From contig CAMOXN010000003.1 in the NCBI GenBank assembly GCA_946629175.1, forward strand, positions 1-35,972: a DNA stretch of 35,972 bases, read 5' to 3'. This document shows positions 26,212 to 35,972 of the stretch, piece after piece (the stretch's first letter is position 1; every line of letters starts with the position of its first letter). Under the pieces are notes generated by a model that did not search any database, had not been told where the DNA came from, and was given only the letters and a program-made list of their open reading frames with translations. A program made the translations under genes and the position numbers. The DNA comes from an uncultured Lachnospiraceae bacterium. Its GTDB lineage: Bacteria > Bacillota > Clostridia > Lachnospirales > Lachnospiraceae.

Positions 26212-26256
26212 AAACTAAGAATCAACCTTTCCACCCGTCTGAAATGGGCATAAGAA

Positions 26257-26446
26257 TGCCTGAAACGTCGCCTTCCGTATTTTGACTCCTAGCACATGGC
26301 CAGGTGGGTGTCCGCAGCTCAGACCTTTGCCTTCCACTGGCAGCGCGGGTGCGCCGGAGGCATGACAGCCGTAAGAGCAATATAAGATTCCCGTTTAAAG
26401 TAATTGTAGGTTCAAAATAACGGAAAATTTGGACCTTTCAGGCACT
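26257..26446 (-). ncRNA. ssrS: Probable 6S RNA
   Basis: About 190 nt; closing stem TGCCTGAAA/TTTCAGGCA, then TTCCGT(T)ATTTTGA/TCAAAATACGGAA and CCTA/TAGG; large central bubble; apical stem; 'GCTGCGGACACCCACCTG' in the 3' bubble strand resembles the E. coli 6S 'CTGCGACGACACATTCACCT' segment. Confidence 0.68.
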
Positions 26447-26476
26447 TTTATTATATCATATTATTTCGATCCGCAC
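26447..26476 (-). promoter_or_regulatory. Promoter for 6S-like RNA (TTGTGC-N17-TATAAT)
   Basis: Minus strand TATAAT about 7 nt upstream of the closing stem; TTGTGC 17 nt further upstream. Confidence 0.65.
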
Positions 26477-31176: not shown

Positions 31177-32334
31177 TCATTCTTCGTCGTCAGCGTGTGA
31201 AGCGATGTAAGCGTCAACATCAACGGAAGCGACGTCCGCGTCTTCACGAGCGCGCTCAGCTGCGCGTCTCGCTCTCTCTTCCTCGATCAGAAGCTGCTTG
31301 ACACTGAGGCTGATCTTGTTGCTGTCCTCGTTGAAATCAACGATCTTCGCGGTGACTTCCTGACCGACCTTGAGTACATCAGAGGGCTTCTCGATGTGCT
31401 CTCTCGCGATCTGGGAGACATGAAGCAGTGCATCGATGCCGGGCTCGAGCTCTACGAATGCGCCGAAATCGGTCATTCTGGCTACGTTTCCGGTCACGAC
31501 AGTACCTACCGCGTACTTCTCGGAAGCGCCTGCCCAAGGGTTCTCATCGGGGAACTTCAGGGACAGAGCGATCTTGGTGCCCTGGATATCCTTGATCAGA
31601 ACGCGGAGCGGCTGGCCTACCTTGAAGACCTTCTTGGGATTCTCAACGCGGCCCCAGCTCATCTCAGAAATGTGCAGCAGTCCGTCTGCGCCGCCCAGAT
31701 CTACAAATGCGCCGAAATCGGTAATATTCTTGACTGTGCCCTCAACCACGTCGCCGGGAGCGATTGTGGAGAACAGTTTCTCCTGCATCTCTTTGCGCTT
31801 AGCTACCAGCAGGACCTTGCGGTTGCCGATATATCTGCGCCTGTTCGGATTGTACTCGGTGATAAGGAACTCGATTTCCTGTCCGAGATACTTGTTCAGA
31901 TCCTTCTCGTAAGTATCAGATACCAGGCTCGCAGGGATGAAGACTCTGACTTCATCTACTACTACACTGAGTCCGCCGGAAAGGACCTGTGTTACCTTCG
32001 CTGTAAGTACTTCCTTGTTGTTGTAAGCTTCTTCGATGCGTTTGTTGCCGCGGTCAGCCGCCAGTCTCTTGTAGGAAAGAAGGACCTGGCCGTCGCCGTC
32101 ATTAACCTTGATAACCTTGACTTCAAGCTTGTCGCCAACATGAAGCACTTCTGTGAGATCCACAGATGAATCATTCGTGTACTCGTTACGTGTAAGAACG
32201 CCGTCGGACTTGTAGCCGATGTTTAAAATGGCTTCGCCCGGCTTTACGTCGATGACTGAACCTTCAACTGCCTCCCCCGTATGAATTGTCTTAAAAGACT
32301 CGTTAAGCATTTGTTCAAAAGTCTGCTCTGACAT
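31177..32334 (-). CDS. S1 RNA-binding domain protein (RpsA-like, four S1 repeats)
   Basis: '[34 protein letters not shown]'-type repeats; adjacent to ispH. Confidence 0.93.
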   Translation of the reverse strand: [385 protein letters not shown]

Positions 32335-33193
32335 AATTTTGAACCTCCTCTATGATATTCTTTGGGGTCGACGCCCCTGCGGTGATTCCTATGATCTGTT
32401 CCGTACCGGCAGGAGAAAGATTAAGGTCACGCCACGTTTGTATGAAATACGTGTTCGCACACTCCCTTCTGCAGATCTCGTAGAGCTTGGCCGAGTTCGA
32501 ACTGCTCTTTCCTCCGATGACGATCATGACGTCCGCCACCTTCGCGATTGCCTCCGCCTCCGACTGCCGCTCATGCGTAGCGTTGCAGATGGTATTCACA
32601 CATTCCCCATTGTAACCTTTTTTACGCAGGATTTCAATAATTTCTTCAAATTTGTTTGCGTTGAAAGTCGTCTGTGAAACGACGCAGATCTTCTTACGCT
32701 CTCCATCCGTGCCGTCCCCCGTAAGACCGGCCGCACTGAACGATTCTGCCTGCTCCGTATTCTCGATCACGGTGACAGGAACGCTCGACCACCCCATGAT
32801 CCCGCGGACCTCCGGATGGTCCGGATTCCCGACGATCACGATCCCGTAACCCTTCGCGCTGTATTCTTCCACGATCCTGTGGATCTTCTTGACAAAAGGA
32901 CATGTGGCATCCGCGCACCTTGCGCCTGTCGCCTTAAGCCTCTCTTCTTCCTCCCTCGAGATCCCGTGGGAGCGGGTCACGATCGTGCCGCCGTGAATGT
33001 CCGACAGCTCTTCATCGGACATGATCACATGTACCCCTTTGCTTTCCAGATCCGCCACAGCTTCCTCGTTGTGGATGATCGGTCCGTAGGTGTATACAGG
33101 CCCGCCTTTTTCTATTTCTTCATATACTATTTCCATCGCGCGCTTTACTCCGAAACAGAAGCCGGCGCTCTTCGCGGTAATGATCTCAGCCAT
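32315..33193 (-). CDS. ispH: 4-hydroxy-3-methylbut-2-enyl diphosphate reductase
   Basis: 'ITAKSAGFCFGVKRAME', 'TYGPIIHNEEAVADLESKGV', 'RSHG', 'ICNATHERQSEA', 'VIGGKSSSNSAKLYEIC', 'GITAGASTPKNIIEEV'. ATG at 33193 with AAAGAGG upstream; ORF track extends to 33337. Confidence 0.97.
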   Translation of the reverse strand: MAEIITAKSAGFCFGVKRAMEIVYEEIEKGGPVYTYGPIIHNEEAVADLESKGVHVIMSDEELSDIHGGTIVTRSHGISREEEERLKATGARCADATCPFVKKIHRIVEEYSAKGYGIVIVGNPDHPEVRGIMGWSSVPVTVIENTEQAESFSAAGLTGDGTDGERKKICVVSQTTFNANKFEEIIEILRKKGYNGECVNTICNATHERQSEAEAIAKVADVMIVIGGKSSSNSAKLYEICRRECANTYFIQTWRDLNLSPAGTEQIIGITAGASTPKNIIEEVQNYVRADF

Positions 33194-33226
33194 TCTCTGA
33201 CAAACCTCTTTCCAATACTTATGATC

Positions 33227-33323
33227 CTGTGGCCGGCTGCCGCGTGTTCTGATCTTTTCCGATCCATTCTTGCACCCAGACACCGGCAATGCCCGAAGGC
33301 ACCCCTCCCGGGACCGGCCACAG
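33227..33323 (-). ncRNA. Candidate structured leader RNA upstream of ispH (unclassified)
   Basis: 10-bp perfect closing helix CUGUGGCCGG/CCGGCCACAG; inner UUCG hairpin GUGCC-UUCG-GGCAU; helix UGCCGGUGU/ACAC(G)CGGCA. Confidence 0.5.
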
Positions 33324-33335
33324 TGTTCACGTCCC

Positions 33336-33364
33336 ATTTTAAATAGAACAGGGGCGGATGTAAA
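33336..33364 (-). promoter_or_regulatory. Promoter for ispH leader (TTTACA-N17-TAAAAT)
   Basis: Minus strand TTTACA 33364-33359, 17-nt spacer, TAAAAT 33341-33336. Confidence 0.65.
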
Positions 33365-33372
33365 CAGGTATC

Positions 33373-33401
33373 TTGCAGTTCGTTTTGCGTCAGTTTATAC
33401 T
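33373..33401 (+). promoter_or_regulatory. Promoter for flavoprotein gene (TTGCAG-N17-TATACT)
   Basis: TTGCAG 33373-33378, 17-nt spacer, TATACT 33396-33401, about 6 nt before the ATG. Confidence 0.6.
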
Positions 33402-33407
33402 GTGAGC

Positions 33408-34727
33408 ATGTATGACGATCACAAAAAGAAAAAGCATAAAAAGCATATCGTAATCATCGGCGCCGGCGCGGCAGGCCTGATGGCAGCCTGCGCGGCTTCC
33501 GACAGAGGCGCGTCCGTCACTATTTTGGAAAAGACGGAGAAGGCGGGCAAGAAGATCTATATCACAGGTAAAGGCAGGTGCAACCTTACGAACGCGTGCG
33601 ATCCGCAGGATTTCATGGGACATGTCGTGACGAACCCGAAATTCCTGTACAGCGCGTTCTACGGGTATGACCAGCAGCAGGTGATGCAGTTCATGACAGA
33701 TAACGGCTGTCCTGTCAAAACAGAGCGCGGCGACAGGGTCTTCCCCGTCTCCGACCACGCCTCCGACGTGACCAGGGCACTCCTCTCCCACCTGAAGGGC
33801 CGGGATGTCCGGATCCGCTACCACTGTCCCGTAAAACGCATCCTGACATTTGAGGAAGACGGAACTGTCCGTGTGGCAGGCGTGGAGACACAGTCCGGAG
33901 AACATGTCGATGCGGATGCCGTGATCCTCGCGACGGGTGGATGCTCTTATCCCTCCACCGGTTCTGAAGGCGACGGTTACCGGATGGCGGAAGAACTCGG
34001 GATCGGTATTATAAAGGCAGAGCCGTCCCTGGTCCCTGTCGCGGCCGCGGATGCCTGGTGCATGCGCCTGCAGGGACTTGCCTTAAAGAACGTGGAGCTG
34101 ACGCTCGGGCGGCCTGACGGAGATCCTCATCAGAAGTCCGGAAAGAAAAAGAAAAAGCCTCTCTACAAGGGATTCGGGGAGATGCTGTTCACGCATTTCG
34201 GGATCAGCGGTCCGCTGGTGCTCACAGCCTCCTCCTATATGAGCTTTCACGATCACCCGGAAGGCTACACAATGCACCTGAACTTAAAGCCCGCTCTCAC
34301 CCCCGAACAGCTTGCGGCAAGGATCCGCCGCGAGATCGACGCCGCTCCGGGAAGAAAGATGGCGACAGTTCTCAGGACTCTTTTCCCGCAGCGCCTTTCG
34401 GAAGAGATCGCGCTTATGTCCGGTATCGGGGAGCGCACCGCGTCTTCCGTCACGGACAAGGAAATAGAAGAACTGTGCGGACTGATCCGGGATGTGCCCA
34501 TCCTCGCAGTCGGGACCCGGGGGTTTTCGGAGGCGATCGTGACGAGAGGCGGCCTCGACGTGAAAGCGTTCGATCCTTCCACAATGGAGTGCAGGTCTGT
34601 CCGGGGACTTTACGCGGCGGGCGAAGTGCTGGATGTAGACGCGCACACCGGCGGATTCAACCTGCAGATCGCCTGGTCAACGGGCCATCTGGCCGGCGAA
34701 TGTGCCGCGGAGGACGCGGAGGACTGA
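33408..34727 (+). CDS. NAD(P)/FAD-dependent oxidoreductase (HI0933/BaiN-like flavoprotein)
   Basis: 'HIVIIGAGAAGLMAACAASDRGASVTILEKTEKAGKKIYITGKGRCNLTN', 'ATGGCSYPSTGSEGDGYRMAEELG', 'VTRGGLDVKAFDPSTMECRSVRGLYAAGEVLDVDAHTGGFNLQIAWSTG'. Confidence 0.93.
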   Translation: MYDDHKKKKHKKHIVIIGAGAAGLMAACAASDRGASVTILEKTEKAGKKIYITGKGRCNLTNACDPQDFMGHVVTNPKFLYSAFYGYDQQQVMQFMTDNGCPVKTERGDRVFPVSDHASDVTRALLSHLKGRDVRIRYHCPVKRILTFEEDGTVRVAGVETQSGEHVDADAVILATGGCSYPSTGSEGDGYRMAEELGIGIIKAEPSLVPVAAADAWCMRLQGLALKNVELTLGRPDGDPHQKSGKKKKKPLYKGFGEMLFTHFGISGPLVLTASSYMSFHDHPEGYTMHLNLKPALTPEQLAARIRREIDAAPGRKMATVLRTLFPQRLSEEIALMSGIGERTASSVTDKEIEELCGLIRDVPILAVGTRGFSEAIVTRGGLDVKAFDPSTMECRSVRGLYAAGEVLDVDAHTGGFNLQIAWSTGHLAGECAAEDAED

Positions 34728-34782
34728 AGGAAGCATTTATTACTCATTTTTATTACTGATAATTTTCTATTTGGAGGAAATC

Positions 34783-35445
34783 ATGATCAATATCGCAATA
34801 GACGGACCTGCCGGCGCCGGAAAGAGCACGATCGCCAAAAGGGTCGCCGCTGAAAAGAATTATATTTATGTAGACACAGGCGCAATGTACCGCGCGATGG
34901 CGCTCTATCTTTACAGGAACGGCATCGACGCCGATGATTCCGCCGCGATCAGCGATAGGTGCGGTGAACCCGATATCACGATCGAGTACAGGAACGGCGA
35001 ACAGGTCGTTCTTCTCAACGGAGAAAATGTCAACGGTTTTCTGCGCACGCCGCAGGTCAGCGATATGGCGTCCAGAAGCAGCGTGAACCCCGACGTCCGA
35101 GCTAAGCTCCTTGAACTTCAGCAGGAACTGGCCCGCAGAGAGAACGTCGTGATGGACGGAAGGGATATAGGTACTGTGGTCCTTCCGAACGCGCAGGTCA
35201 AGATCTTCCTTACGGCCAGCGCGGAAGTGAGGGCCAGGAGGAGATATCTCGAGAATATCGAAAAGGGTCTTCCGGCTGATCTTGGCGAGATCACAGCCCA
35301 GATCAAAGAGCGCGACGAGCGCGATATGAACCGCCCGGTCGCGCCTCTCAAACAGGCCGACGACGCAGTCCTCGTAGATACGTCCGATCTGACGATCGAA
35401 GAAGTCGTGGAGAAGATCCTCGCCATAATAGACGAAAAAATATGA
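34783..35445 (+). CDS. cmk: Cytidylate kinase
   Basis: 'MINIAIDGPAGAGKSTIAKRVAAEKNYIYVDTGAMYRAMALY', 'VVMDGRDIGTVVLPNAQVKIFLTAS'. GGAGG before ATG at 34783. Confidence 0.97.
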   Translation: MINIAIDGPAGAGKSTIAKRVAAEKNYIYVDTGAMYRAMALYLYRNGIDADDSAAISDRCGEPDITIEYRNGEQVVLLNGENVNGFLRTPQVSDMASRSSVNPDVRAKLLELQQELARRENVVMDGRDIGTVVLPNAQVKIFLTASAEVRARRRYLENIEKGLPADLGEITAQIKERDERDMNRPVAPLKQADDAVLVDTSDLTIEEVVEKILAIIDEKI

Positions 35446-35447
35446 TT

Positions 35448-35497
35448 AAAAAAGCTGCCGCGCAAGAAAACATAGTTTCTTGCGCGGCAGCCTTTTA
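35448..35497. terminator. Bidirectional terminator between convergent cmk and tpiA
   Basis: 16-bp perfect stem GCTGCCGCGCAAGAAA-acatag-TTTCTTGCGCGGCAGC flanked by AAAAAA and CTTTT. Confidence 0.93.
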
Positions 35498-35505
35498 TGT
35501 TCTGA

Positions 35506-35972
35506 TTACTTGTAATTCACGATCTTTCCGAAGTCTTCCTTCAGGGAAGCACCGCCTACCAGTCCGCCGTCGATATCGGGCTGCGCGAACAGCTCGGGAG
35601 CGGATTTGCCGCTGACGGAGCCGCCGTACTGGATACGGATCTTCTCAGCTGTATCAGCGTCGTAGATCTCAGCGATGAGCTCACGGATCGCGTGGCAGAC
35701 TTCCTGTGCCTGCTCGGTCGTAGCGACCTTGCCGGTGCCGATGGCCCAGATGGGCTCATACGCGATGACCATGGAAGCAGCCTGCTCAGCAGTGATGCCG
35801 ATCAGGTCGCTCTTGAGCTGCAGGCGGATCCAGTCGATGGTGACGCCTGCTTCTCTCTGTTCCAGAGACTCGCCGCAGCAGAGGATCGGGATCAGGCCGT
35901 ACTCGAAAGCCTTGAGGACCTTTCTGTTGAGGAAAGCGTCATCCTCTTTGTAGTAATCTCTTCTCTCGGAGT
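35506..35972 (-). CDS. tpiA: Triosephosphate isomerase, truncated at window edge (C-terminal part)
   Basis: '[30 protein letters not shown]', '[29 protein letters not shown]'. The frame stays open to the window edge with an upstream '[10 protein letters not shown]' motif. Confidence 0.96.

What the first reader, a model, noticed from the sequence alone, without database searches (positions are those of the whole stretch)
33227..33323. Strongly foldable GC-rich leader RNA upstream of ispH, no known class recognised
Seen: between a TTTACA-N17-TAAAAT promoter and the ispH RBS there is a roughly 140-nt leader. Its core is closed by a perfect 10-bp helix (CUGUGGCCGG/CCGGCCACAG). Inside are a UUCG-tetraloop hairpin (GUGCC-UUCG-GGCAU) and a second helix UGCCGGUGU/ACAC(G)CGGCA, giving a plausible three-way junction. 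It does not resemble an SRP RNA, T-box or riboswitch I recognise. Inference: a cis-regulatory element for isoprenoid synthesis or S1-protein expression, or an independent small RNA.
Basis: partly seen in the sequence, partly recalled or inferred. Interest (0 to 1): 0.66.

Follow-up and report, generated by a model that had tools for sequence, protein, structure and literature searches.

The report
New four-way-junction RNA in Lachnospiraceae
The folded sequence upstream of ispH is not an ispH switch but one copy of an unrecorded, strongly conserved stand-alone small RNA found in about one in seven Lachnospiraceae genomes, which a local DNA inversion happens to have placed in front of ispH here.

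Summary
Minus strand 33323-33227 folds as described, more stably than all 200 shuffles. The interpretation as an ispH/S1 cis-element does not hold. In all ten relatives examined the element lies between convergent tpiA and divergent BaiN, followed by cmk and ispH; in the window the block [element-BaiN-cmk] is inverted, so the element's promoter now points into ispH-rpsA. Covariance searches found single copies across Lachnospiraceae (54 of 397 genomes in one search) and nothing convincing elsewhere in samples of order, class and phylum. On 84 distinct sequences 97.4% of pair cells are kept and 21 of 27 pairs have two-sided changes; a tree-aware null gives 18 significant pairs, all on the four helices. 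A sigma-70-like promoter abuts P1 in about 94%, a U-run often follows, and downstream genes are same-strand or opposite 37:37. No Rfam family overlaps it even at E<=5; 6S, SRP and Clostridiales-1 are separate. Best read as an undescribed trans-acting, probably protein-binding small RNA. Its target is unknown and no transcript data were available.

The parts
33359..33364 (-). -35 element TTTACA of the RNA's promoter
   Evidence: sequence; TTTACA conserved in the nearest congeners
33336..33341 (-). -10 element TAAAAT, 17-nt spacer
   Evidence: sequence; family-wide the -10 mostly ends 9-13 nt before P1
33227..33323 (-). the structured RNA core (four-way junction, 97 nt)
   Evidence: covariance model matches; 97.4% of pair cells kept in 84 sequences
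33314..33323 (-). P1, 5' strand (CUGUGGCCGG)
   Evidence: fold and alignment
33227..33236 (-). P1, 3' strand (CCGGCCACAG)
   Evidence: fold and alignment
33303..33312 (-).
   Evidence: C-G to U-A changes; loop counts
33289..33302 (-). P3 hairpin GUGCC-UUCG-GGCAU; length highly variable in relatives
   Evidence: 4 of 5 pairs with two-sided changes
33276..33288 (-). P4, 5' strand UGCCG-GUGU-CUGG
   Evidence: 11 of 13 pairs with two-sided changes
33253..33275 (-). P4 apical loop GUGCAAGAAUGGAUCGGAAAAGA; CA near its 5' side conserved family-wide
   Evidence: consensus
33238..33252 (-). P4, 3' strand UCAG-A-ACAC-G-CGGCA with two bulges
   Evidence: alignment
33191..33213 (-). ispH translation start region (GGAAAGAGG 33213-33205, ATG 33193-33191), start codon 33 nt after P1
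   Evidence: sequence
32315..33193 (-). ispH, which the RNA's promoter now reads into
   Evidence: TIGR00216 above cut-off
31177..32334 (-). rpsA (S1), overlapping the end of ispH
   Evidence: NF005208 above cut-off
33373..33401 (+). divergent BaiN promoter TTGCAG-N17-TATACT
   Evidence: sequence; similar in nearest congeners
33408..34727 (+). 'BaiN': aminoacetone oxidase family FAD-binding enzyme, inside the inverted block
   Evidence: TIGR00275 above cut-off; synteny
34780..35445 (+). cmk, inside the inverted block
   Evidence: TIGR00017 above cut-off; synteny
35449..35496 (.). bidirectional terminator-like hairpin between cmk and tpiA; in several relatives a terminator-like hairpin lies between element and tpiA instead
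   Evidence: relatives

Best explanation
The element is a stand-alone structured small RNA gene of about 100-110 nt, belonging to a family not recorded in Rfam. SHOWN by comparison: a sigma-70-like promoter reads directly into P1. P1 closes a four-way junction of P2 (UCC-GGGA-GGA type), a P3 hairpin of variable length, and a long P4 with two constant bulges and a large apical loop. A U-run often follows P1. One copy per genome was found in the family-wide search, and gene neighbours change between clades. INFERRED: it is transcribed as a discrete RNA and acts in trans through a bound protein, or as a folded scaffold, rather than as a switch for its neighbour; constancy lies in the junction, the GGGA loop and P4, not in a long open seed. 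INFERRED for this genome: an inversion of [element-BaiN-cmk] parted it from its terminator and made it the first 100 nt or so of the ispH-rpsA transcript, so ispH-rpsA is probably driven by the small RNA's promoter.
For: Homologues with consistent two-sided changes: 97.4% of cells paired against 80.4% after shuffling and 37-48% when slid; 21 of 27 pairs with two-sided changes. Tree-aware null: 18 significant pairs, 14 in the drawn structure and 4 that extend P1 and P3. Promoter-like site with score >=8 in 94% of 84 loci against 22% of shuffles, mostly 9-13 nt before P1; dense T in the 20 nt after P1 in 58% against 30%. Downstream gene orientation 37:37. One match per genome in the family search at E<=0.01. 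Ten congeners carry the RNA between tpiA and BaiN in reverse orientation, with terminator-like hairpins between RNA and tpiA in several. 6S and SRP RNAs are separate loci. No Rfam overlap.
Against: No transcript data were available, so expression and ends are inferred. Only about 14-18% of sampled Lachnospiraceae genomes show it, unusual for a housekeeping RNA, though divergent copies may be missed. In one clade it lies 2-182 nt upstream of a same-strand gene read as coaX, so a cis role in some lineages is not excluded. 35 of 84 copies lack a dense U-run right after P1. The inversion rests on one draft genome, 67.65% complete.
Confidence: 0.77

Rival explanations
1. A cis-regulatory leader (riboswitch, attenuator or S1/ispH autoregulation element) of the downstream gene.
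For: In the window it lies 33 nt before ispH under one promoter. In nine loci of one clade it lies 2-182 nt upstream of a same-strand gene read as coaX.
Against: Downstream genes are unrelated between clades and on the opposite strand in half of 74 loci. In the window's own relatives the downstream gene is convergent tpiA. One copy per genome in the family search.
Confidence: 0.1
2. A stand-alone RNA as in the best explanation, but acting by base pairing (antisense), with the P4 apical loop or the GGGAGGAG segment as seed, rather than through a protein.
For: The P4 loop has conserved parts (CA near its 5' side, AUCC or AUCCC at its 3' side in many sequences), and GGGAGGAG resembles a Shine-Dalgarno sequence.
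Against: Conserved loop parts are short and the middle of the loop is variable; GGAG is partly inside P2; selection is mostly on the structure. No target prediction was made.
Confidence: 0.25
3. A divergent form of a known housekeeping RNA (6S, SRP) or of a known Rfam family such as Clostridiales-1.
For: Single copy, compact, strong promoter-like site, highly structured.
Against: 6S and SRP found as separate loci in carriers; Clostridiales-1 is multi-copy and none of the matches listed lies at the element; no Rfam overlap at E<=5 in 20 divergent homologues.
Confidence: 0.04
4. A DNA-level or mobile element (palindromic repeat, integration site, transposon end) and not an RNA gene.
For: Patchy distribution, changing neighbours, occasional recombinase or tRNA neighbours.
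Against: Single copy per genome; no match in viral contigs, phages or plasmids; promoter in a fixed place and constant loop and bulges.
Confidence: 0.03

Closest known systems
Orphan stand-alone structured RNA classes such as Clostridiales-1 (RF01699) and Gut-1 (RF01706)
   Same: Found through covariation, no known function, not tied to one downstream gene; Clostridiales-1 occurs in many of the same genomes.
   Different: Different sequence and fold: no Rfam overlap. Clostridiales-1 occurs in up to more than 80 places per genome with a 166-position model; this RNA is single-copy with 104 positions.
6S RNA (RF00013)
   Same: Single-copy small RNA gene in the same genomes.
   Different: Separate 6S loci exist in carriers, one just below cut-off at window 26253-26447; 6S is a long hairpin with a central bubble, not a four-way junction (6S shape from general knowledge).
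Bacterial small SRP RNA (RF00169)
   Same: About 100 nt, single copy, compact.
   Different: Separate SRP RNA loci in 5 carriers; no SRP model match at the element.
Proteo-phage-1 (RF03044)
   Same: Best chance match at the element, 16.9 bits, E about 1.
   Different: Far below the gathering score of 42 and absent in divergent homologues: chance.

Membership tests
Riboswitch / cis-regulatory leader of ispH or rpsA | lies in the 5' UTR of the same gene or pathway across species | tested here: not met
   ispH downstream only in the window; convergent tpiA in ten relatives; 37:37 orientations
Any Rfam 15 family | match at or above gathering score | tested here: not met
   window and divergent homologues
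Clostridiales-1 (RF01699) | model match at the element's position | tested here: not met
   matches listed in carrier genomes lie elsewhere and are multi-copy (the list was cut at weak scores); no overlap in cmscan of homologues
6S RNA (RF00013) | 6S model match at the element | tested here: not met
   6S-like match at another place in the same contig; none at the element
SRP RNA (RF00169) | SRP model match at the element | tested here: not met
   separate loci in 5 carriers; none at the element
Stand-alone structured small RNA | own promoter in fixed position | tested here: met
   94% at score >=8 against 22% shuffled; consensus match only, not measured
Stand-alone structured small RNA | own terminator or defined 3' end | tested here: inconclusive
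   dense T after P1 in 58% against 30%; others have a hairpin further down or abut a tRNA; the window has none visible
Stand-alone structured small RNA | covarying secondary structure | tested here: met
Stand-alone structured small RNA | detected as a transcript | not testable with these tools
   no RNA-seq available
Protein-binding (RNP) RNA | partner protein | not testable with these tools
   needs pull-down or Grad-seq

The most novel reading that the evidence does not exclude
A previously undescribed class of single-copy, trans-acting RNA specific to Lachnospiraceae, a major gut and rumen family, that works as an RNP with an unknown partner; and in the window's lineage its gene was turned by an inversion into the promoter and leader of ispH-rpsA.
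Probability: 0.5. Interest if true: 0.78.

Novelty: new variant of a known kind. Interest (0 to 1): 0.64.

Why it matters
Lachnospiraceae are among the dominant anaerobes of the human gut and the rumen (general knowledge), and in the open literature searched here I found no description of this RNA. A class with 18 significantly covarying pairs, found in roughly one in seven genomes sampled across the family, is a concrete target for transcriptomics and RNP pull-downs. The window also offers a natural experiment: a stand-alone RNA gene recast as the leader of a metabolic gene by one inversion. It warns against naming leader RNAs by the gene that happens to follow.

Tried and rejected
ispH/S1 leader: rejected by relatives' gene order and orientation counts. 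Repeat element in the own genome: only one full copy found (the genome is 67.65% complete). 6S, SRP and Clostridiales-1: separate loci. Mobile or phage origin: no match in viral contigs, phages or plasmids. Protein-coding reading: the ATG in the P4 loop is followed by different frames in L012 and L013 because of a one-base indel (by eye). Loop-loop kissing of P2 GGGA with UCCC in the P4 loop: 28 of 84 loops have a 4-nt complement against 7 expected from shuffles, but the window's own clade lacks it and the P2 loop hardly varies, so inconclusive. Weak model matches below about 26 bits (L111, L114-L119, L159) were not counted as members. Literature: no description found; the supplements of PMC8040213 (structured RNAs in human microbiomes, 2021) and PMC11109978 (50 bacterial genomes, 2024) could not be read, so an unnamed candidate there is possible.

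Full report
WHAT WAS CLAIMED. It proposed a cis-element for ispH or S1, or an independent small RNA.

CHECK. Everything described is in the sequence, on the minus strand: TTTACA-N17-TAAAAT promoter (33364-33336), P1 33323-33314 with 33236-33227, the UUCG hairpin 33302-33289, and the long helix 33288-33276 with 33252-33238. The fold is more stable than all 200 dinucleotide shuffles (z -3.1 and -3.7). The core is therefore a four-way junction with almost no unpaired linker. Rfam gives no match for the element.

RELATIVES. blastn against 99 genomes gave ten strong matches in the same genus (E 4e-12 or better; an eleventh at E 0.0066 was only a 19-nt stretch). RNAalifold on eleven sequences gave a four-helix structure. 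A covariance model found 20 of 62 genomes of the genus. A second model found 54 of 397 genomes of the family, in 50 of 334 genera, one match each at E<=0.01. That search scored only a few candidates per genome; a deeper search of 40 genomes drawn with at least 95% completeness (own genome excepted) gave 7, a similar rate, so the patchiness does not look like a filter effect. Samples of the order (246 genomes), class (245) and phylum (250) gave no convincing match outside the family; two weak ones at 22.9 and 25.9 bits were not accepted. Named carriers are Lachnospiraceae MAGs, many from the rumen, and the isolate Sarcina sp. DSM 11001 (NCBI lists that isolate under Clostridiaceae).

COVARIATION. 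On 84 distinct sequences 97.4% of pair cells are standard pairs (80.4% after shuffling; 37-48% with partners slid by 1-3 columns). 21 of 27 pairs have at least one two-sided change, with 385 such cells against 98 in shuffles. The alignment was fitted to the model, which leans towards its structure. I therefore also ran a tree-aware null in the manner of R-scape (my own script): substitutions placed on a FastTree tree by parsimony were moved to random columns on the same branch. 18 column pairs were significant at E<0.05. 14 are in the drawn structure, and the other 4 extend P1 (columns 8-101, 9-100) and P3 (31-38, 32-37). No significant pair contradicts the structure.

TRANSCRIPTION UNIT. A sigma-70-like site with at least 8 of 12 consensus letters lies upstream in 94% of loci (22% in shuffles), with the -10 mostly 9-13 nt before P1. 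So the RNA would begin at or just before P1. A dense T stretch follows P1 in 58% (30% in shuffles). Several others have a hairpin terminator further on or abut a tRNA gene directly (L086, L136), where RNase P could make the end (inference). Upstream and downstream genes change between clades. The downstream neighbour is same-strand in 37 and opposite in 37 of 74 loci (ORFs called mechanically).

WHY IT LIES BEFORE ispH HERE. In all ten relatives examined the order is tpiA, element (convergent with tpiA), BaiN (divergent from the element), cmk, ispH; rpsA follows on the eight contigs that reach so far. In the window it is tpiA(-), cmk(+), BaiN(+), element(-), ispH(-), rpsA(-): exactly the order of the relatives with [element-BaiN-cmk] inverted. 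No inverted repeat flanks the block that would suggest a repeat-mediated assembly error, but it is a single draft genome, so the inversion needs confirmation. A terminator-like hairpin remains beside tpiA (35449-35496). P1 is followed after 33 nt by the ispH start codon, leaving little room for another promoter, so ispH-rpsA is probably read from the small RNA's promoter (inference). All helices of the element are intact here, and P1 is a perfect 10 bp.

NOT A KNOWN RNA. A 6S candidate is elsewhere in the same contig (26253-26447, 44.7 bits, cut-off 46.4). SRP RNA is a separate locus in five carriers. Clostridiales-1 is multi-copy and elsewhere. No Rfam family overlaps 20 divergent homologues even at E<=5. 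No match in viral contigs, phages or plasmids. Paper searches found no description, with the limit that supplements and subscription papers could not be read.

HOW IT PROBABLY WORKS. Selection maintains a compact four-way junction, a GGGA tetraloop on P2, and P4 with bulges at fixed places; the only long open region, the P4 loop, has short conserved ends and a variable middle. That is the pattern expected of a protein-binding or scaffold RNA more than of an antisense RNA. This last step is inference. The possible P2-P4 loop contact (28 of 84 against 7 expected) is open, and absent in the window's clade.

VERDICT. What remains is a well-supported, apparently undescribed RNA family whose biochemical role is unknown.

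Noticed in passing
window 31177-35970: Inversion of [element-BaiN-cmk] relative to all ten relatives examined, splitting the BaiN-cmk-ispH-rpsA gene row.
   Followed up: yes
window 26253-26447 (-): 6S RNA candidate at 44.7 bits, just below the Rfam cut-off of 46.4; similar scores in several congeners.
   Followed up: partly
L048, L051, L055, L058, L060, L069, L077, L079, L112: In one clade the RNA lies 2-182 nt upstream of a same-strand gene that reads as type III pantothenate kinase (coaX; named from sequence knowledge), often without a clear terminator.
   Followed up: partly
L086, L136: The RNA abuts a tRNA gene directly (tRNA-Gly, tRNA-Ala), so RNase P may set its 3' end; five loci have a tRNA-Ala within about 300 nt.
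   Followed up: partly
G369, G246, G422, G308: Clostridiales-1 (RF01699) occurs in about 30 to more than 80 places per genome in some Lachnospiraceae, like a repeat family.
   Followed up: no
84 homologues, P2 loop and P4 loop: UCCC in the P4 loop complementary to the GGGA loop of P2 in 28 of 84 (7 expected), absent in the window's clade.
   Followed up: partly
window 33336-33401: Back-to-back divergent promoters of the RNA and BaiN, conserved in the nearest congeners.
   Followed up: partly
L018 1501-1519: A 19-nt exact copy of the RNA's 3' part (CGGCAGCCGGCCACAGGAT) in G023, apart from that genome's full copy (L052).
   Followed up: no
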